A DNA stretch of 58,644 nt, taken from a virus. The translations under genes and the position numbers were made by a program. Of this stretch, positions 3,327-31,623 are shown piece after piece; the stretch's first letter is position 1; every line of letters starts with the position of its first letter. The DNA is taken from positions 1-58,644 of IMG/VR virus record IMGVR_UViG_3300044714_000125. The stretch is one strand, 5' to 3'. The notes beneath the pieces were generated by a model. The model was not told the origin of the DNA. It saw only the letters and a list, made by a program, of their open reading frames with translations, and did not search any database.

Positions 3327-3357
3327 TCTTCTCATAGCAATTGTCATAGATTTTAAG

Positions 3358-3391
3358 TAAAGGCGGTCCTTTTCCAGGGATTGCCTTTTTT
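3358..3391 (+). terminator. Rho-independent terminator after lysis genes
   Basis: AAAGGCGG at the 5' side can pair with TTGCCTTT at the 3' side around an inner TCC/GGA pairing, and the hairpin runs into a T-tract. It begins about 30 bases after the endolysin stop and closes the lysis operon. Confidence 0.6.
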
Positions 3392-3627
3392 GTATAATCC
3401 TTTGAAATTTTGCAAATAATATTTTGTATAAATGCAAAGGATTTTGCAGATATTCATAGTCCTTTCGATGGGACAAGGCGGCACGAAGTTTAAGTACAGC
3501 CGGGCAGGAGGACGAATACGCGAGTTCCCGATAATCCTGCTGTCAGGGCCGCAACAGAACCGCTGCATGGGGTTCATACTCCGTTAACATCCCGAGCGCA
3601 CATATCTACCATCAATGAAAGGAATGA

Positions 3628-3653
3628 GGATCGTCGGCCGGCGGTCCTTTTTT
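3628..3653 (+). terminator. Second rho-independent terminator
   Basis: GGATCGTC pairs with GGCGGTCC (8 pairs including G-T wobbles) around a GGCC loop, followed by six T. It lies 300 bases past the endolysin. The stretch 3392-3627 between the two terminators has no gene I can support and may be a short non-coding transcript. Confidence 0.6.
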
Positions 3654-4101
3654 CGTATCTTTAACCTTGTACTTTACTAATCAGCGTCCATTTATTGAAG
3701 TCGGCCTGCCTTTTTATGTGGGCCTTTTCTTTTCCCCTCTTACATATTCAGGGTCTCTATCCCTTTGTAGTTCAAAGTCTCTAAGAATAAAAGGGGAGAA
3801 CGTAAATGATTGAGGGAGGAGGAGGGAGCAAGAGAGACCCTGTTTGCCTCGGCATAACTTCGCTAAGGAAACAGGGCCACAAAAAGACACAAATGACGTC
3901 GGTCGTTATCGGTCGTTTTGAGAGGCGCCCATCGCTGGTGACGGCGTCCGTAAAGGTTGCTTTAAAGGGTTTCCAGCCCCTTCCTGGTACTCGCGCTCCT
4001 TCATTGCCCTCGCGATGGCTTTGTGCCCAGGCGCCCGTCTAAGCCCCCATAATCGCCGCCCGGACTGTAGATCATTCCCGACAGGTGGCTGGGATAGACG
4101 G
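3654..4101. other. Intergenic region with a hairpin, no supported gene
   Basis: No ORF here has convincing protein character; a 78-codon + frame at 3806 and several minus frames look fortuitous. A hairpin at 3838-3876 has a perfect 8-bp stem (CCCTGTTT/AAACAGGG) with three further pairs inside. Minus-strand frames give fragments with protein-like composition in two different frames, which could mean a decayed gene. The region lies between converging transcripts. Confidence 0.35.
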
Positions 4102-4314
4102 TTACTTCGGGAAGTCTCGCTTGTTTAACGGGGCATTTTCAGATTTAACAATACGGTACCCGCTTTCTGGGTCCAAGCGGTTATCGATTACCCATTGATC
4201 AATTTGCTGTAAGGTCGTGTCGGGATAAACATTCAGCACCATTTTTTGGCGCTCCCATGAATCTTCGCTGACCTGAACGGTCTTTTTGGCGATAATGACG
4301 TAGCTATTAAGCAT
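4102..4314 (-). CDS. Small hypothetical protein, 70 aa
   Basis: The ATG at 4314 was chosen because CAGGGAACTTC directly precedes it and the upstream in-frame start is only a TTG. The product (MLNSYVIIAKKTVQV...) is soluble, with an aromatic and charged C-terminal half. It is transcribed alone on the minus strand from a well-formed promoter at 4404-4433, back to back with the early promoter. That layout is typical of a regulator gene, but no DNA-binding motif is visible, so function is unknown. Confidence 0.6.
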   Translation of the reverse strand: MLNSYVIIAKKTVQVSEDSWERQKMVLNVYPDTTLQQIDQWVIDNRLDPESGYRIVKSENAPLNKRDFPK

Positions 4315-4403
4315 GAAGTTCCCTGAATGAAGAAACCCTCCAAAGTCGGCGAATGAGGCACCGCCCTTGAAAGGCTTCAAACTATTTCAGAAATGAGTTT
4401 CAG

Positions 4404-4433
4404 CAAAAGTAACACCCCTCATTGATATTACAA
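4404..4433 (-). promoter_or_regulatory. Bacteroidota-type promoter (minus strand)
   Basis: Read on the minus strand: TTG, 19 bases, then TACTTTTG, a perfect match to the TAnnTTTG -7 element of the Bacteroidota primary sigma factor. It points at the 4102-4314 gene with a leader of roughly 80 bases. Confidence 0.7.
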
Positions 4434-4513
4434 TGCTTTGATCTGCTAAATAAATGATTTTCTGCCGACTATCCAAATTTTTCCAGATGATAACTAATTT
4501 TATCAAAAATAAC

Positions 4514-4543
4514 TTGTTTAAATCAAAACATTCCCTATCTTTA
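4514..4543 (+). promoter_or_regulatory. Bacteroidota-type early promoter (plus strand)
   Basis: TTG, 19 bases, TATCTTTA: seven of eight matches to TAnnTTTG with the same spacing as the divergent promoter at 4404-4433. It starts the early region; the first gene begins about 30 bases downstream at 4573. Confidence 0.7.
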
Positions 4544-4572
4544 CCTAACAATTCACCAAAAAACTAAGCAAA

Positions 4573-4722
4573 ATGGAAACCAAGACAGTTACTATCTCGA
4601 AATGGAATCGCCGTTCTCTCGATGGCAAGATGTTGAAGCAAGTCGTTATAAAGACCCCGGCCGGCAGGAACCGGAAGGGTAAGAATATTTTTCGCTCTCA
4701 GACCATGCACATTCCTGTCTAA
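4573..4722 (+). CDS. Small basic protein, 49 aa, first early gene
   Basis: First ORF downstream of the early promoter, with an A-rich leader. The 49-residue product is very basic (KWNRRSLDGKMLKQ and PAGRNRKGKNIFRS), suggesting nucleic-acid binding, although no fold is recognised. The stop is followed at once by the next start (TAAATG), which supports coupling. Small basic early proteins often target host transcription or translation; that is conjecture here. Confidence 0.6.
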   Translation: METKTVTISKWNRRSLDGKMLKQVVIKTPAGRNRKGKNIFRSQTMHIPV

Positions 4723-5031
4723 ATGCGCTTGGTTTTAAGCCGGATGCCCGCTACCTTAACCGGAGCGGGCTTTGGCGGCAAAAGACGTTTCATGCAGATA
4801 CCGATGGAGCTTTTAAACAAATGGAAGGGGCTTCGCAGCCGGGGCGATAACGAAAAAATAAACGCTCTTTTGGACAAGCCGCTTACCGACCCTGTGGCTA
4901 TGAGTATTTTCTCGCGGGCGTTCAATCGCGGTCGGTGCCCTGACCATATTTTCAAAGTTCTCTATCAATTTTATACACAAAAGGAGGCGGACCTTTTCCC
5001 TCCCGCAAAATCCACATCAAATGAACACTAA
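4723..5031 (+). CDS. Hypothetical early protein, 102 aa
   Basis: Starts at the ATG abutting the previous stop; a second possible start is at 4792 (MQIPMELLNKW), which gives 79 residues and omits a low-complexity N-terminus. The core (about residues 28-90) is helical and charged with a region GDNEKINALLDKPLTDPVA. The helix spacing could be a helix-turn-helix, but the match is weak. Overlaps the next gene by 11 bases. Function unknown. Confidence 0.6.
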   Translation: MRLVLSRMPATLTGAGFGGKRRFMQIPMELLNKWKGLRSRGDNEKINALLDKPLTDPVAMSIFSRAFNRGRCPDHIFKVLYQFYTQKEADLFPPAKSTSNEH

Positions 5032-5314
5032 CATCGAAATCCAGCCCCAGGACCTTGCCATGGAAAAATTCCGCGCCCTCTTTCAGGCCCCCCTCCCGGT
5101 CTGCCATGTTTTCAAGGATGGCCGGGTCATGCGCTACCGCATCCGTAATGAGCGTTTAGCGCTCGAATACCATGCGATGGCCCTGCGGATCATTGACCAA
5201 AACAGTCTGCCTCTTGAGGCTACAATTGACAACTGGAAGGTTGGGGATGTGGTTTTTGATCGGTGGCTGGTTCTGGAATACGTCGCCATAAAGGAGGTCT
5301 TATCATGCTACTGA
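5021..5314 (+). CDS. Hypothetical early protein, 97 aa
   Basis: Soluble protein without recognised domains; N-terminal half with a basic strand (KDGRVMRYRIRNERL), C-terminal half acidic and hydrophobic. It overlaps genes on both sides (start inside the previous gene, end over the next start at 5305), so it is part of a tightly packed early operon. Function unknown. Confidence 0.6.
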   Translation: MNTNIEIQPQDLAMEKFRALFQAPLPVCHVFKDGRVMRYRIRNERLALEYHAMALRIIDQNSLPLEATIDNWKVGDVVFDRWLVLEYVAIKEVLSCY

Positions 5315-5550
5315 CCGATGAAATGCAAAAGGTCTGCTACATCCTATACCAAGCCAAGCCGACGACGCTTTTAGGAAAGGGAATTTTGGTGGTCATGCAG
5401 GGCGGCAATAAGGACGAACTCATTACCCTACTGATGGAACTGAAGGATTTACTGACCGACTGGCCGGAGGTCTTACGAACGACTTTTGAGCCGGCGCAGG
5501 TGGAGGAATTGAAAGGTTTATTAACAAAAATATTCTTGAATAGTCTGTAG
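5305..5550 (+). CDS. Small helical protein, 81 aa
   Basis: The ATG at 5305 has a strong AGGAGG site ten bases upstream, unusual in this genome and decisive against the longer frame beginning at 5263. The product is helical (MLLTDEMQKVCYILYQAK ... LITLLMELKDLLTDW) and probably oligomeric. It is the last gene before an ORF-free structured stretch. No family recognised. Confidence 0.6.
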   Translation: MLLTDEMQKVCYILYQAKPTTLLGKGILVVMQGGNKDELITLLMELKDLLTDWPEVLRTTFEPAQVEELKGLLTKIFLNSL

Positions 5551-10489: not shown

Positions 10490-10789
10490 ATGGAAAAAAG
10501 CCAGTTTCACATTGTCAGGGCCGAGAAAGCCGGAGTATTTTTATGCAAGATCGTCTCAAAGGATGGCGATACTTATACCGTCAATTCCTTTCGTCGGTTA
10601 TATTATTGGTCTGGGGCGTTGGATGTTTCTATGCTTGCGAAGGATGGCGTTACCAATCCCCGTGCCTGTAAATTTTCCGTCCAGATGGGCGAGGATGATG
10701 TGTCTACAATTCTCAATGTGATCGAAGTACATCCGGTCTCTGAAAAAGCATTATCAATAATCAACAACGTGCCGGTATGGAAGCAATAA
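10490..10789 (+). CDS. DUF6948-like protein, 99 aa
   Basis: The pattern AGVFLCKI ... RRLYYWSGALDVSMLA ... NPRACKFSV ... ILNVIEVHPVSEKA ... VPVWKQ matches a small phage family annotated as DUF6948, in which a YW-GA motif and an Ile-Glu strand are conserved. Biological role unknown. It overlaps the next gene by 13 bases; in other phages this family is often next to glycine-repeat proteins, as here. Confidence 0.65.
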   Translation: MEKSQFHIVRAEKAGVFLCKIVSKDGDTYTVNSFRRLYYWSGALDVSMLAKDGVTNPRACKFSVQMGEDDVSTILNVIEVHPVSEKALSIINNVPVWKQ

Positions 10790-11598
10790 AAATTAAGAAA
10801 TTCCTATCCGGTTCCGGTTCCGGTTACGGTTCCGGTTCCGGTTACGGTTCCGGTTACGGTTCCGGTTACGGTTCCGGTTACGGTTCCGGTTCCGGTTCCG
10901 GTTCCGGTTACGGTTCCGGTTACGGTGACGGTGACGGTTCCGGTTCCGGTTCCGGTTCCGGTTCCGGTGACGGTTCCGGTGACGGTTCCGGTTCCGGTGA
11001 CGGTTCCGGTTACGGTTCCGGTGACGGTTCCGGTGACGGTGACGGTTACGGTTCCGGTTCCGGTTACGGTTCCGGTTCCGGTTACGGTGACGGTGACGGT
11101 TCCGGTTCCGGTGACGGTTCCGGTTACGGTGACGGTGACGGCTTAAAAATACAGTCTTTCAAAGGCGAGGCCGTTCATTACATTGATGGCATTCCCTGCA
11201 TTTTTTCTTCCATAAAAGACGAATATGCCCTGATCGAGGTTATTGATGTAAAAGACTTCGGACGGACTAAAATGTACGTCGCCAAAAAGGAGGGGCTTTT
11301 CGCGCATGGAGTTACACTTAAAGAGGCTACTGATCAGGTAAATCAAAAATGGATTGCCTCCCAAACCGTGGAGGAAAAGATTCAGCGGTTTAAAGAGACC
11401 TTCAAAAAAGGAATAGCCTATAAGGCCACGCTCTTTTACGAATGGCATTCGCTGCTGACGGGTTCCTGTAAGGCAGGAAAGGATTTATGGATTTCACAGC
11501 ACGATATCAACCTGGAATCGGATATGACGGTTGAGAGATTCATAGAACTGACCAGGTCGGCCTATGGTGGTGAAATTATCCGGAGATTGAGCGAATAA
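10777..11598 (+). CDS. Gly-X repeat protein with conserved C-terminal domain, 273 aa
   Basis: Residues 11-122 consist of 56 Gly-containing dipeptides in which every second residue is Gly and the partner is Ser, Tyr or Asp. A short start (MEAIKIKKFL) precedes it. The C-terminal 150 residues form a regular domain: AVHYIDGIPCIFSSI, then FAHGVTLKEAT, then FYEWHSLLTGSCKAGKDLW and MTVERFIELTRSAYGGEIIRRL. This domain matches a phage family of unknown function that usually lacks the repeat. The repeat is likely a flexible linker or an expansion created by slippage, splitting the natural N-terminus (KIKKF...) from the rest. Overlaps the DUF6948-like gene. Confidence 0.7.
   Translation: MEAIKIKKFLSGSGSGYGSGSGYGSGYGSGYGSGYGSGSGSGSGYGSGYGDGDGSGSGSGSGSGDGSGDGSGSGDGSGYGSGDGSGDGDGYGSGSGYGSGSGYGDGDGSGSGDGSGYGDGDGLKIQSFKGEAVHYIDGIPCIFSSIKDEYALIEVIDVKDFGRTKMYVAKKEGLFAHGVTLKEATDQVNQKWIASQTVEEKIQRFKETFKKGIAYKATLFYEWHSLLTGSCKAGKDLWISQHDINLESDMTVERFIELTRSAYGGEIIRRLSE
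10807..11142 (+). repeat. Coding hexanucleotide repeat, (TCC/TAC/GAC)GGT x 56
   Basis: Fifty-six tandem 6-base units in frame, each a TCC, TAC or GAC codon followed by GGT; only the last Gly codon is GGC. Apart from that there is no synonymous variation: every Ser is TCC, every Tyr TAC, every Asp GAC. This points to recent expansion by slippage or unequal recombination. Copy number probably varies between relatives. Confidence 0.9.
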
Positions 11599-11609
11599 TT
11601 TGAATGGTC

Positions 11610-11643
11610 AGCCGGGCCCTGATTGCGGGGTGGGCTCTTTTAA
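11610..11643 (+). terminator. Probable terminator after the repeat-protein gene
   Basis: AGCC...GGGCT with inner GGGCCC/GGGG pairing, followed by TCTTTT, beginning 12 bases after the stop. It separates the upstream operon from the structured RNA region. Confidence 0.5.
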
Positions 11644-12089
11644 AGTTCTTTGATCAAAATATTGCGGGAGGATTGCATTGGGAGGCGCCGGCGGCCTACG
11701 GGCGAGTAACGCGGTTCTGTTCCCTGTAATGGAACGACACGATTCGTTAAAACAAGTGGCGTGGGTACTGAAAATACGTAACCAATCGTATACCACTACG
11801 ATGATGCAAAGACAGGGACCGCAATCTTCTTAAGTGCTGGCGGGTAAGCCGCGGGAGCCGCAATCCTTCCCAACTCCTTCGGGTGGCTGGACAAACTGCG
11901 GTGGCGACGTGGAAAATTAGAAAAAGCGGACACGTACGGTCGGTTGCTCGGACACAGAAAGCAAAGTCGCATTGAGACTTAAAACGATGATCGGAGCAAA
12001 ACCGTCCGCCTGTATGCAGGAAAAACCGTGGCAAGCAGTTATCATCGTGTAACCGGTAAGATAGCGGGATTGCCTTTTTGCTCCGTTTT

Positions 12090-12161
12090 GGACGAATAGC
12101 TCAGCGGTAGAGCTTCTGGTTGTTAACCAGGCGGTCGCGGGTTCAATCCCCGCTTCGTCCT
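12090..12161 (+). tRNA. tRNA-Asn (anticodon GTT)
   Basis: Full cloverleaf: acceptor GGACGAA/TTCGTCC (12090-12096 with 12154-12160), D arm GCTC...GAGC, anticodon stem TCTGG/CCAGG with loop TTGTTAA (anticodon GTT at 12122-12124), T arm with GTTCAATCC. No CCA is encoded. It starts five bases after the end of the pseudoknot in the structured RNA. Confidence 0.95.
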
Positions 12162-12326
12162 CACCGGCGATATTGCCGGCAATCTCGATTTGATGAAATG
12201 GGTTTTAATCGGTAACGGTTGGAATCTGGGGATTCAAAAAGGGACGGGTAAGACCAAGGTAAGAGGGTGGGTTATTCTTAATCCGCTTTTTGGTCTGAAC
12301 GTATTAGTAATATTGGATTTCAGTTC

Positions 12327-12358
12327 GGGCGGTGGTATTCCTGCCGCTGCCCTTCTTT
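12327..12358 (+). terminator. Terminator ending the tRNA/structured RNA unit
   Basis: GGGCGGTGG pairs with CCGCTGCCC (9 pairs including two G-T) around loop TATTCCTG, followed by TTCTTT. It marks the likely 3' end of the transcript that contains the tRNA. Confidence 0.6.
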
Positions 12359-12389
12359 AAAATCATTACATTCACTCAAAATAAATTCC

Positions 12390-13070
12390 ATGACAGAAAA
12401 TCAATCTCAGCTCGAAATAAGGGCGGTAAAGCTCAAAAGAAAAGGCGATGAAGGATTCATTCCGGAGATTATCGTTCACGATCCGGAGGCCAAACTCAAC
12501 CGGACCTACAGCGATTGCGAGAACCTTTGCCACTCCGATTTTACAAAAGCGGTCAGCCGCCTAAACCACCATATCGCGGTCCTTACCGACAAGATCACCA
12601 CCGACCGCTTCGAGGATGATAAGGACATCGACGAGATCATGGTCGCCAGGGGTTTCAGCTATTCCGGGGCTGAGATGGAGCTCCGGGTAACCTTGAAGGG
12701 ATACCAGAAGACCTCCCGCGGCGGCACCTTCCAGATCAATACCCCTGTAGTTTACATGGAAACGGAGGATGAGGACAAACAGTACTATTTCATTGATGAC
12801 CTGAAGGAAAAGCTCAAACGAATCGCCTTGGAGGCCCGGCTTTACATCTTCTCGGGCAAGAAATTCGAAGATCCCCAGCTGAGCCTGACACTTCCCGATC
12901 CGCCGGATGACAAGAAAAAGGTTACCAACGCCAAAATAGCCGATCCAATAGGAAAGGTAGCGGCTGAAATCGTAGCCGGCGTCAATGGGGCCAAAGACAG
13001 CAAAAAGAAGGGAGGAAAGAAACGCGTGGCTCAGACACCTGAAAATAAAAGCGGGGAGGCAGAGGAATAA
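12390..13070 (+). CDS. Hypothetical DNA-metabolism protein, 226 aa
   Basis: The N-terminal 150 residues form an alpha/beta domain (QLEIRAVKLKRKGDEGFIPEI ... FTKAVSRLNHHIAVL ... SGAEMELRVTLKGYQ). The C-terminal 50 residues are a disordered Lys-rich tail (GAKDSKKKGGKKRVAQ). Basic tail plus one-base overlap with a DNA methylase gene suggests nucleic-acid binding. No family recognised. Confidence 0.55.
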   Translation: MTENQSQLEIRAVKLKRKGDEGFIPEIIVHDPEAKLNRTYSDCENLCHSDFTKAVSRLNHHIAVLTDKITTDRFEDDKDIDEIMVARGFSYSGAEMELRVTLKGYQKTSRGGTFQINTPVVYMETEDEDKQYYFIDDLKEKLKRIALEARLYIFSGKKFEDPQLSLTLPDPPDDKKKVTNAKIADPIGKVAAEIVAGVNGAKDSKKKGGKKRVAQTPENKSGEAEE

Positions 13071-13567: not shown

Positions 13568-13928
13568 AATAGAGCCATGCCAAGAAAAAGGTAAAATTAC
13601 CTATATAGGATTGTGCTGATTATCAATGCGGTCATTCGACTCATTTGAGCAGTCTGGGTAAAATTACACAGCTTTTTTACAAACTGAATAAAAAGCTTGA
13701 CTATGGAAGGATCGCTCGTAAAACCGATTTGCATCGGGTGCAACATGCTATATCGAGGCCGGGATGCCCGCGGTCCCTCACCCCGGCAGATGGATCGCGC
13801 CATGAGGCTCAAAATGCTTGACAGAATCAGGGGTCCTACCAGGGGAAGCGGATAGCCTGCCGGCCGGGATTATCCAGTTGATGAAGATGATTTCGCCCCG
13901 GCTGGCGGGTATCACGTGAAAAAAGTTC
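13568..13928. other. ORF-free intergenic region with strong inverted repeats
   Basis: No gene supported. Inverted repeats: AGCTTTTT/AAAAAGCT (about 13671-13696), GCCGGG/CCCGGC (about 13758-13787) and a 10-bp stem GCCGGCCGGG/CCCGGCTGGC (13859-13906, one G-T). It may hold a non-coding RNA, a 3' UTR or a replication-related site next to the HTH gene. No DnaA-box cluster or iterons were seen. Confidence 0.4.
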
Positions 13929-13959
13929 TTTGAAGATTTGAATAAAGGAAGTATTTTTG
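13929..13959 (+). promoter_or_regulatory. Perfect Bacteroidota-type promoter
   Basis: TTTG, 19 bases, TATTTTTG: exact matches to the -33 and -7 elements with the same spacing as the other promoters here. Expected start about 13964, giving a leader of roughly 125 bases to the HTH gene. Confidence 0.75.
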
Positions 13960-14004
13960 ACGGCATTCTCACCAAACCAACCAATGATCTTATTAAACAC
14001 GAAT

Positions 14005-14090
14005 ATCCCTGAAGGGGAAAGGCATCTCGCCGGGTGGTTCCGGGGTGAGAAAATATTGAGATGCTTACCTCTGCAGGGATTTTTGTTTTT
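14005..14090 (+). promoter_or_regulatory. Attenuator-like leader of the HTH gene
   Basis: Nested stems ATCCCTG/CAGGGAT (14005-14011 with 14074-14080) and GCATCTC/GAGATGC (14022-14028 with 14058-14064) are followed by TTTTGTTTTT ending one base before the ATG at 14091. It looks like an intrinsic terminator in the 5' UTR. An alternative TCTC/GAGA pairing inside could compete with the outer stem. The signal is unknown. Confidence 0.55.
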
Positions 14091-14795
14091 ATGCGGGTTA
14101 CAGTCTTCCTTCCGATAAGCCTCATAAGGTGGGCTCAAGCGGAAGGCTGGCTCCGCTCCCTGGCGTACTTCGTCCGGCTCAAAAGCCTCTATAAGAACAA
14201 TACCCACTACAATTTCACCCTCCGTTCCTTATCCGGCCGTATAGGCTGTTCCCCGGCCTGTTTGGCGCATCATCTGAAAGTACTCGAATCCGAGGGCCTT
14301 ATCCGCTACCACGGCAATAATGTGACCTTTGTAGGTTTTAAGAAGCTATCGGCGAAATACGGGGAAAAGAACATCGGCGTACCGGTGGATCCCAAAAATC
14401 AATTGGAGGTCCTGCGGGCTCAATTAATCAGACTGAATCTGGGCAACCAAGCCTACCACATACATAAGATCGGAACACAAAAACGCAGCACGAGGTATAT
14501 CCCGTGGACCAAAACTGAAAGATTTTATAGCTGCTACGTTGGTTTGTCATGCATCGGGTTCGGTAAGATTTTGGGGTTGTCGGCGGCGTCAGGTCAAAGG
14601 ATCAGGCGAAAGTTAGTAAGACGGGGTATTCTGGATCAGAAGCGGGTGTATTCAGTGATCATGACAGGAATAGCCGAAGGAGATATGCGAAGGATGAAGG
14701 TAGCCGGGGTCATCCCCATTTTTAGTAAATTAGTGAATGGGAAGGTGCTGGTGGAAAGGAGATCGGAACTCAGGTACAATAGGGCAACTCCCTAA
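14091..14795 (+). CDS. Winged helix-turn-helix protein, 234 aa
   Basis: The region about residues 40-75 (FTLRSLSGRIGCSPACLAHH, then LKVLESEGLIRY) is a clear winged-helix DNA-binding motif. A second HTH-like segment lies near 165-195 (LSAASGQRIRRKLVRRG). The start at 14091 was preferred because the alternative ATG at 14061 lies within the terminator stem. Two DNA-binding regions and a basic composition fit a replication initiator or a transcription regulator. Expression is probably controlled by the leader 14005-14090 and the promoter at 13929. Confidence 0.65.
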   Translation: MRVTVFLPISLIRWAQAEGWLRSLAYFVRLKSLYKNNTHYNFTLRSLSGRIGCSPACLAHHLKVLESEGLIRYHGNNVTFVGFKKLSAKYGEKNIGVPVDPKNQLEVLRAQLIRLNLGNQAYHIHKIGTQKRSTRYIPWTKTERFYSCYVGLSCIGFGKILGLSAASGQRIRRKLVRRGILDQKRVYSVIMTGIAEGDMRRMKVAGVIPIFSKLVNGKVLVERRSELRYNRATP

Positions 14796-25664: not shown

Positions 25665-25699
25665 ATTGAAAGTCACAAAAGTTGCCTAAATTCGACACA

Positions 25700-26899
25700 A
25701 TGGTGAAACTATCCTCCATAAAGCCGAACCCCAACAATCCCCGCTTGATCAAAGATGATCGGTTCGTGAAACTGGTAAAATCGATACAGGAGTTTCCTAA
25801 AATGATGGAATTGAGGCCAATGGTCATAGACAAGACCAGGATCATCATCGGAGGAAACATGAGGCTCAAGGCGCTGCGGGAGCTCGGCTATAAGGAAATA
25901 CCGAACGAATGGATCAAAAAGGCCGAAGACCTTACCGAGGAAGAGAGGCGCCGATTCATCATCGCCGATAATGTTTCCTTCGGAGAAAATGACTGGGAGG
26001 CCCTCGGCGCCGATTGGGATATCAAGGAATTGGAAGAGTGGGGGCTCGACATCAACGGGTTCGCCAAGCCCGACGAATCCCTGGAGGAAGATGATTTTGA
26101 GAACAACGAGGAAATTGAGACCGATATCGTGCAGGGGGATTTGTTTGAGATAGGACCGCACCGGTTGCTATGCGGGGATAGTACCCAGATAATAGATATC
26201 GAAAATGTCACATGTGGGCAAATACCAGAGTTAGTATTTGCTGATCCGCCTTACGGTGTGGATATTGTTCAGGGCTCAAGCGTTGGTGGGGGCGGCCCCA
26301 CCAAATTCGGAGGGAAGATTGGGAAAACGGTAAAGAGTACAAAAGGATTTAATCGGGTTATAGGCGATAAAACAACGGATGCGGCGAAAAGATTCTATAA
26401 TGCATGCAAAAAATTAGCTTTCAATAATTTGATTATATGGGGCGGCAATTATTTTACCGACTTTCTTCCGCCTTCAATGTGCTGGATTGTTTGGTACAAA
26501 AAGAATACTGGCAATTTTGCTGACTTCGAAATGGCATGGACCTCTTTCAATCAGGCCGCAAAACTCTATGAATATCTTTGGAATGGTTTAAGCCGCGAAG
26601 GTGAACGTAGGCTGGAGCTAAAACGTCGGGCGCATCCTACGCAGAAAGCCGTCGGGGTTTGCGGGATGATATTCAATGATTTTCAATTTGAGCTATGCTT
26701 CGATGGTTTTGGTGGATCCGGCACTACAATGGTGGCTTGTCATGAAATGAAAAGACGTTGCGCAATGATCGAGATAGACCCTAAATATTGCCAAATCATC
26801 GTCGATCGCATGAGAAACCTCGATCCTTCGATAATTATCAAGAAAAATGGCGTATTTTTAGAAAATGCAGGGAAAAATCCCGATCAAGCAGGTAAATAG
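25700..26899 (+). CDS. ParB-like/DNA methyltransferase fusion, 399 aa
   Basis: The N-terminal 100 residues are a ParB/Srx-like domain (VKLSSIKPNPNNPR; IIGGNMRLKALRELGYKEIP). They are followed by a methylase with DPPYG (motif IV, about residue 183) and FGGSGTT near the end (motif I, SAM binding), so the motif order is the beta type of N6-adenine or N4-cytosine enzymes. ATG 25700 was preferred over TTG 25682. The fusion is common next to phage terminases and may mark DNA for packaging or shield it from restriction. Third DNA methylase in the window. Confidence 0.85.
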   Translation: MVKLSSIKPNPNNPRLIKDDRFVKLVKSIQEFPKMMELRPMVIDKTRIIIGGNMRLKALRELGYKEIPNEWIKKAEDLTEEERRRFIIADNVSFGENDWEALGADWDIKELEEWGLDINGFAKPDESLEEDDFENNEEIETDIVQGDLFEIGPHRLLCGDSTQIIDIENVTCGQIPELVFADPPYGVDIVQGSSVGGGGPTKFGGKIGKTVKSTKGFNRVIGDKTTDAAKRFYNACKKLAFNNLIIWGGNYFTDFLPPSMCWIVWYKKNTGNFADFEMAWTSFNQAAKLYEYLWNGLSREGERRLELKRRAHPTQKAVGVCGMIFNDFQFELCFDGFGGSGTTMVACHEMKRRCAMIEIDPKYCQIIVDRMRNLDPSIIIKKNGVFLENAGKNPDQAGK

Positions 26900-29585: not shown

Positions 29586-29947
29586 ACAATATTGGCCGGT
29601 CATACGAAAACGGTAAATTCTATTCCCGTCGCTCCTTCTGGGTTAACAATGGAGTACCAAATTGCTAATTTTGGACAATCTTTGTATTCTAGGTTCGAAT
29701 CCTGGCGTGTCGATGAAAATCGGCGTGTGGCGGAACGGTAAACGCAAAAGACAAACAAACCCTAAAAGCTTACGGCTCAAAGGTTAAAGGTCAAACCTCA
29801 CCGCTCAAAGTTCTTTCCGATCAAAGATGAAACCTAAAAACGCAAAGCTCTTTCAAACCCTGTATAAATTTTCATGGGGACTAATAGACCACCCCTGCCG
29901 TTTGATCCAGGCTGTATGGCCGGCCAATACTTTTAAAAGATATCAAC
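29586..29947. other. ORF-free region with tRNA-like fragments
   Basis: Contains a well-formed T-arm CTAGGTTCGAATCCTGG (29689-29705). It is preceded by a Ser-type anticodon loop TTGCTAA flanked by CCAAA/TTTGG (29657-29674) and a possible D arm CTCC/GGAG (29632-29654). The acceptor strands do not pair, so no complete tRNA-Ser results. A second D-arm-like piece GCGGAACGGTAAACGC is at 29730-29745, after a repeated GGCGTGT. Reads as decayed tRNA genes or a tRNA-like element. No protein gene. Confidence 0.4.
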
Positions 29948-30893: not shown

Positions 30894-30905
30894 ACCCCTT
30901 CAACA

Positions 30906-31001
30906 ATGAAAAATTACCAGCATCTCATTATTGTCATCGTCCGCTCCCTGGTTATCGGCGCGGCCCTGGCTTATGCTCTTTATGTCTTAACGCAGGGATA
31001 G
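30906..31001 (+). CDS. Tiny membrane protein, 31 aa
   Basis: A 31-residue frame starting MKNYQHLIIVIVRSL with one membrane helix (about residues 7-27). It lies 12 bases after the zinc-ribbon gene on the same strand. Short single-helix proteins are frequent in phages; support here is topology and spacing only. Confidence 0.4.
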   Translation: MKNYQHLIIVIVRSLVIGAALAYALYVLTQG

Positions 31002-31059
31002 ACTCGCTCCCAATAAAAACCGTAGGCAACTATACCCATTTACACGCAAACAGCAAAAA

Positions 31060-31233
31060 ATGAAAAAAATCACTTTCGGATTGAGGATTTTCCGGAATCC
31101 ATGGGACAAAGATATATTTGTCGCGCGTTTAATTGCTGCGGCTGCGATTGCTTATATTTCTCTTGTCCTATTGCTTGTTTTCGCAACTCTTGCATTTGCA
31201 ATTTATTTAATTTGTAATTCTCTTCCGTTATAA
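31060..31233 (+). CDS. Small membrane protein, 57 aa
   Basis: Preceded by an A-rich leader (CAGCAAAAA). After a basic start (MKKITFGLRIFRNPWDK) there is a long hydrophobic stretch (LIAAAAIAYISLVLLLVFAT...), enough for one long or two short membrane helices. Last plus gene before the minus-strand operon; no terminator was found between them. Function unknown. Confidence 0.5.
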   Translation: MKKITFGLRIFRNPWDKDIFVARLIAAAAIAYISLVLLLVFATLAFAIYLICNSLPL

Positions 31234-31288
31234 ACAATGCAACCAGCGACACAGCATATTTTCATGTAACGGTCTGTCACAATGATGG

Positions 31289-31513
31289 TCATACAAAGAC
31301 AAGAGCAACAAACCTGTGGACCTTTCGGGAAACAGCTTTGCGATTAATGGTCGGAAGTGAGAATTGTAAATATCCGTGAGGATCTTTGCTCAGTTTTAAA
31401 ATCCTCACCGACGACCTGTAATTTTCTCTGGGGAGAGACTTTATGCGGCCGTGAGAACTGATCATGTATTTGCCGTCCTGACCAGGAAAATCTTTCCAAA
31501 TTTCTTGTTCCAT
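31289..31513 (-). pseudogene. Truncated NUMOD4-type homing endonuclease fragment
   Basis: Residues EIWKDFPGQDGKYMISSHGR and the end KVHRFVALVFV match the NUMOD4 domain and the start of the HNH region. The frame stops where NPxxxxxVxHxN(G) and the rest of the nuclease should follow. Starts at ATG 31513 (MEQEIW...). It is a decayed selfish gene at the 3' end of the minus operon, related to the fuller copy at 38236-38598. Confidence 0.6.
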
Positions 31514-31623
31514 AAAAAAATAAGCCAGCATGCGATTGCGGCACACACTGACCTATTTTTGGCTAACTAATTAACCGGGTTCATCCGCAATATGTACCCG
31601 ATTATGATTGCCTTAAAGGTAAA

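What the first reader, a model, noticed from the sequence alone, without database searches (positions are those of the whole stretch)
11642..12358. Large structured RNA around a tRNA-Asn
About 715 bases with no convincing protein gene, ending in a terminator and containing a complete tRNA-Asn. Many perfect complementary segments give several stems on both sides of the tRNA. Phage-borne ornate RNAs of this size near tRNAs are known (GOLLD, ROOL); this may be a member or a new class.
Basis: partly seen in the sequence, partly recalled or inferred. Interest (0 to 1): 0.8.

Follow-up and report, generated by a model that had tools for sequence, protein, structure and literature searches.

The report
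Phage noncoding RNA unit carrying tRNA-Asn
A phage, probably infecting a Bacteroidota host, makes a roughly 700-base noncoding transcript with a tRNA-Asn in its middle, introduced by an antitermination signal like those before ribosomal RNA genes; it is not one of the known giant phage RNAs, and no relative was found that could show whether the parts around the tRNA have a job of their own.

Summary
The observation largely holds. Window 11642-12358 has no credible protein gene, contains one intact tRNA-Asn (12090-12161) and ends in an intrinsic terminator (12327-12352). Structure is uneven: the 3' side (12163-12320) folds far better than shuffles (z -4.7); the 5' side (11656-12089) does not (z -0.8), though perfect complementary arms are mildly enriched (p about 0.02), including a possible 8+10 bp pseudoknot. 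GOLLD and ROOL membership is not supported: GOLLD is absent even at single-family E<=10, and no large RNA reached E<=10 in the whole-Rfam lax scan. Group II intron, 16S and 23S resemblances were also tested and fail. New here: the unit begins, right behind another terminator, with an exact boxA-like element (AAGTTCTTTGA; twice in the window, 0.02 expected). The same element precedes tRNA arrays in other phage contigs and sits just upstream of true GOLLD RNAs in two of three phages checked. Best reading: a boxA-led, antiterminated stable-RNA unit holding a tRNA-Asn and structured flanks, in the slot GOLLD occupies elsewhere. No homologue was found in GenBank phages, plasmids, about 54 TerL-related records or 395 Bacteroidota genomes, so covariation could not be tested and a separate function remains unproven.

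The parts
11616..11641 (+). Intrinsic-terminator-like hairpin and T tail that closes the upstream gene (ORF 10777-11598) and abuts the boxA-like element
   Evidence: stem 11616-11631; the same terminator-then-boxA order is seen in L052 and L058/L059
11643..11653 (+). boxA-like antitermination element AAGTTCTTTGA, followed by TCAAAATATTG
   Evidence: 2 exact copies in the window, 0.02 expected; compare E. coli rrnH TGCTCTTTAACAATTT and TGCTCTTTAAAAATCTGG and phage tRNA/GOLLD leaders
11661..11872 (+). 5' domain: complementary arms 11669-11676/11860-11867 (AGGATTGC/GCAATCCT) enclosing 11721-11727/11812-11818 (TCCCTGT/ACAGGGA); alternative register 11661-11667 with 11819-11825 or 11858-11864
   Evidence: folding energy of 11656-12089 not above shuffles, arm enrichment p about 0.02
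11984..12085 (+). Possible H-type pseudoknot: 11984-11991 with 12041-12048 (8 bp) and 11992-12001 with 12076-12085 (10 bp), ending 4 nt before the tRNA
   Evidence: 49 of 10,000 shuffles have such a contiguous layout; post hoc
12090..12162 (+). tRNA-Asn(GTT), CCA not encoded; discriminator base reads U73 (position 12161)
   Evidence: four other phage tRNA-Asn genes in held loci read G73
12163..12320 (+). 3' domain: strong hairpins 12164-12179, 12184-12243 (13 bp core) and 12244-12302 (12 bp core)
   Evidence: z -4.69, 0 of 200 shuffles; model R1 built on it finds no relative in 1.39 Mb
12327..12358 (+). Intrinsic terminator ending the unit
13923..14090 (+). Second boxA-like element (13923-13933) and a noncoding hairpin with terminator-like end; probably a second small stable-RNA unit
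   Evidence: z -1.52 for 13934-14095; the sampled 160-nt window starting at 14001 is the second lowest fold z-score (-3.86) in the background sample

Best explanation
The region is a stable-RNA transcription unit of a phage that probably infects a Bacteroidota host. RNA polymerase reads in from upstream (shown: no room for a promoter between the upstream terminator and the boxA-like element; inferred: read-through). The boxA-like element loads the host NusB/S10 antitermination complex (inferred from the motif and from rrn biology), which lets polymerase cross more than 600 untranslated bases without Rho termination. It makes a 5' leader of about 436 nt, a tRNA-Asn and a structured trailer of about 160 nt, then stops at the terminator 12327-12352. 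RNase P and 3' processing would free the tRNA (inferred). The unit occupies the same slot, boxA then long noncoding RNA beside tRNA, that GOLLD RNAs occupy in other phages, so the flanks may form a GOLLD-like accessory RNA, but that last step is not shown.
For: Noncoding by codon score and family search; tRNA-Asn; terminators on both sides. boxA: two exact AAGTTCTTTGA copies vs 0.02 expected. A boxA-plus-tRNA pattern scan of IMG/VR returned tRNA-rich phage contigs, several with the rrn-like extension CATATTGG or CGTATTGG that the pattern did not require; L053, L054 and L055 carry five further boxA copies, all on the tRNA strand. boxA precedes GOLLD in L052 (4574; GOLLD 3' domain 5010-5434, 270 bits) and L229 (1424; GOLLD 1933-2338, 287 bits) but none was seen before GOLLD in L230. 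3' domain z -4.69. tRNAs are reported inside the GOLLD linker region (PMC12286853); boxA recruitment of NusB/S10 and protection of untranslated RNA from Rho is described in PMC4807359 and PMC12691694.
Against: No homologue, so no conservation or covariation. The 5' half does not fold better than shuffles. Other long intergenic gaps exist in this phage without boxA. No transcript data. The Bacteroidota host is inferred from TerL relatives and the motif, not shown.
Confidence: 0.62

Rival explanations
1. An ordinary phage tRNA gene in a long, functionless spacer: boxA and terminator serve tRNA-Asn expression, and leader and trailer are precursor sequence discarded after RNase P and 3' trimming.
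For: Leader folding is not above chance; no conservation found; boxA precedes plain tRNA arrays in other phages.
Against: The trailer is strongly structured, arms in the leader are mildly enriched, and keeping about 600 nt of spacer for one tRNA is costly; boxA phages elsewhere often pack tRNAs with short spacers.
Confidence: 0.3
2. A member, possibly very diverged, of a known large RNA family such as GOLLD or ROOL.
For: Size, tRNA inside the unit, phage context, and a boxA leader shared with GOLLD units.
Against: No GOLLD or ROOL match at E<=10 in the whole-Rfam lax search; GOLLD alone against the window gives nothing at E<=10, while three phage GOLLDs score 270-287 bits; alignment to L052 GOLLD not above shuffles. 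Only about 196 nt follow the tRNA, less than the 416-position GOLLD model.
Confidence: 0.05
3. The remains of a group II (class C) intron behind a terminator: 11898-11934 resembles class C domain I.
For: Position behind an intrinsic terminator and a short resemblance to class C domain I noted from memory; real class C introns were fetched for comparison.
Against: No RF02001 (D1-D4-3) or RF00029 (domain V) match at E<=10 in the window; alignment to a real class C D1 not above shuffles, p 0.57.
Confidence: 0.02
4. The 3' part is a small protein gene (12193-12360, 55 codons) and its stems are incidental.
For: The frame is open from 12127 to 12358.
Against: No match in phages by tblastn, best PHROG E 0.2, no Pfam match, unremarkable codon score, terminator lies inside the frame, fold z -4.69.
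Confidence: 0.06

Closest known systems
GOLLD RNA (RF02032)
   Same: Phage-borne, several hundred nt, beside or around tRNAs, and behind a boxA-like leader in two of three phages examined here (L052, L229; not seen in L230)
   Different: No covariance-model match, shorter, lacks the 416-position conserved 3' region; no evidence of a cage-forming structure
ROOL RNA
   Same: Phage-borne, large, near tRNAs
   Different: No match in the lax Rfam search
boxA-led rRNA and CRISPR transcription units
   Same: boxA-like element at the start of a long untranslated transcript
   Different: Phage gene, one tRNA, no rRNA similarity
boxA-led phage tRNA arrays (L052-L060)
   Same: boxA-like leader, sometimes directly behind a terminator; tRNA content
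   Different: One tRNA only, with about 436 nt before it and about 160 nt after it

Membership tests
GOLLD (RF02032) | Match to the covariance model of the conserved 3' region | tested here: not met
   Nothing at E<=10 in the whole-Rfam lax search or for the family alone against the window; positive controls L052, L229, L230 score 270-287 bits
GOLLD (RF02032) | Phage setting near or around tRNAs | tested here: met
   phage genes
GOLLD (RF02032) | Multimeric RNA cage | not testable with these tools
   Needs cryo-EM or native gels
ROOL | Covariance-model match | tested here: not met
   No match at E<=10 over all Rfam families
Group II intron, class C | Domain V and D1-D4 covariance matches | tested here: not met
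boxA-led antiterminated stable-RNA unit | boxA-like element at the start of a noncoding transcript | tested here: met
   (sequence only; the transcript itself is inferred)
boxA-led antiterminated stable-RNA unit | Dependence on NusB/S10 for expression | not testable with these tools
   Needs transcription assays
New structured RNA class | Covarying helices in homologues | tested here: inconclusive
   No homologue found

The most novel reading that the evidence does not exclude
A new class of large phage RNA, not GOLLD or ROOL, built around a tRNA-Asn with an unusual discriminator base and expressed through a captured host boxA antitermination signal, possibly acting as a GOLLD-like accessory RNA in the lytic cycle.
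Probability: 0.22. Interest if true: 0.72.

Novelty: new variant of a known kind. Interest (0 to 1): 0.42.

Why it matters
If boxA marks stable-RNA units in phages of this kind, it gives a simple sequence handle for finding their long noncoding RNAs, GOLLD included, and a testable reason why such untranslated RNAs escape Rho. No paper linking GOLLD and boxA turned up in the held library (its four hits are plant papers), but that library is incomplete. A non-GOLLD RNA in the same slot would suggest that GOLLD-type function can be met by unrelated RNAs.

Tried and rejected
GOLLD, ROOL and all Rfam families. Group II intron: a short resemblance at 11898-11934 to class C domain I was chased with pattern scans (none) and real introns, then rejected by covariance search and shuffled alignment. 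16S-like stretch GGCGGCCTACGGGCGAGTAACGCGG: not above shuffles, pattern scans gave nothing or a coding chance hit. Homologues through TerL relatives, nhmmer and a covariance model of the 3' half, 395 Bacteroidota genomes (the hits inspected looked like chance matches, mostly in coding frames), neighbouring protein 12390-13070 (none). A whole-region fold script timed out. The E. coli boxA test pattern was too strict and gave no match; direct reading found both rrnH boxA sites.

Full report
What is there. The window is a 58,644-base phage record with terminase, portal, major head protein and recombination genes; its TerL relatives include Bacteroidota phages and prophages, so a Bacteroidota host is likely but not shown. 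Between ORF 10777-11598 and ORF 12390-13070 lies a noncoding stretch with low codon scores except around the tRNA. It holds one tRNA-Asn(GTT), a terminator-like hairpin before it (11616-11641) and a terminator at its end (12327-12352).

Is it structured? The stretch after the tRNA clearly is: 12163-12320 has z -4.69 with none of 200 shuffles as stable, and the 160-nt window 12200-12359 scores -4.62, below every sampled background window except the low-complexity repeat at 10801. The stretch before the tRNA is not convincing by energy (z -0.83); local windows in its first part even fold worse than shuffles. It does hold more perfect complementary arms than expected (p about 0.02) and a possible pseudoknot of 8 and 10 perfect pairs whose contiguous layout is seen in 49 of 10,000 shuffles. 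Both figures are post hoc, so I call this suggestive.

The leader. At 11643-11653 stands AAGTTCTTTGA. It occurs twice in the window and 0.02 times in shuffles; with the looser AAGYTCTTTRA the expectation is 0.16. It matches the E. coli rrn boxA core read from rrnH (TGCTCTTTAACA, TGCTCTTTAAAA). I tested whether it is a general leader of phage stable RNAs. An IMG/VR scan for the motif plus a tRNA D-arm 430-460 nt on gave nine stretches, all in tRNA-bearing contigs; several show the rrn-like extension CATATTGG or CGTATTGG, which the pattern did not ask for. L058 and L059 carry the same sequence, so they are not independent. L053, L054 and L055 hold five more copies, all on the tRNA strand. In L052 and L058/L059, as in the window, boxA directly follows an intrinsic terminator. 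L052 also carries a true GOLLD RNA with boxA at its 5' edge (4574), and of two further phages with homologous GOLLD RNAs L229 has boxA just upstream (1424) while L230 has none in the stretch read. The second boxA of the window (13923) also opens a noncoding stretch, whose hairpin gives the second lowest z-score in the sampled background, though the whole 13934-14095 segment scores only -1.52.

What it is not. GOLLD, ROOL and every other Rfam family except tRNA fail, GOLLD also on its own at E<=10. Two look-alikes that I noticed by eye, a 16S-like stretch near the 5' end and a class C group II intron motif at 11898-11934, do not survive tests.

Relatives. None was found in GenBank phages (beyond the tRNA only chance-level matches), plasmids, the whole records of 54 TerL relatives from IMG/VR and MAGs, 395 Bacteroidota genomes, or with nhmmer and a covariance model over held loci.

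How it most likely works. Polymerase entering from upstream passes the terminator, picks up host Nus factors at boxA, and is thereby protected across the untranslated leader, tRNA and trailer until the terminator at 12327-12352. Shown: the elements and their order, and the recurrence of boxA before tRNAs and GOLLD in other phages. Inferred: Nus recruitment, read-through, processing, and any function of the flanks. The tRNA has U73 where four other phage tRNA-Asn genes have G73; G73 is, from my own knowledge, an identity element for AsnRS, so charging may be weak and should be assayed.

Verdict. A real noncoding, boxA-led tRNA-Asn unit with a strongly structured 3' part; not GOLLD or ROOL; an orphan for now. 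Most likely a variant of a stable-RNA unit, with a minority chance of being a new large RNA.

Noticed in passing
window 13915-14100: Second exact boxA-like element (13923) opens a noncoding stretch with a long hairpin ending in a T run; no credible Rfam match and only chance-level blastn matches in phages.
   Followed up: partly
window 12161: Discriminator base of the phage tRNA-Asn is U73; four other phage tRNA-Asn genes in held loci have G73.
   Followed up: partly
L055 3609-3735 (similar sequence in L054): A permuted tRNA-like element inside a phage tRNA array; matches YrlA (Y RNA-like, RF02553) at E 1.8e-6, 36.9 bits, below the family's 69-bit cut-off.
   Followed up: partly
L052 4574, L229 1424: boxA-like element just upstream of GOLLD RNAs in two phage contigs, one of them from a 634,780-base record; no paper in the held library links the two.
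   Followed up: partly
L029 2183-2375: boxA followed by a noncoding stretch that ends in a tRNA-like T-arm and acceptor (AGAGGTTCGATTCCTCTTACCCGT); ARAGORN does not call it a tRNA.
   Followed up: no
window 10800-11145: Long in-frame GGTTCCGGTTACGG-type repeat inside ORF 10777-11598, encoding a Gly-Ser/Tyr/Asp-rich stretch.
   Followed up: no
window about 3330-3800, 4040-4720, 29590-29940, 30900-31620: Other long stretches with low coding score, without an exact boxA; possible further noncoding elements.
   Followed up: no
window 25682-26899: ORF that matches both ParB-like partition/nuclease and DNA methyltransferase PHROGs, apparently a fusion.
   Followed up: no
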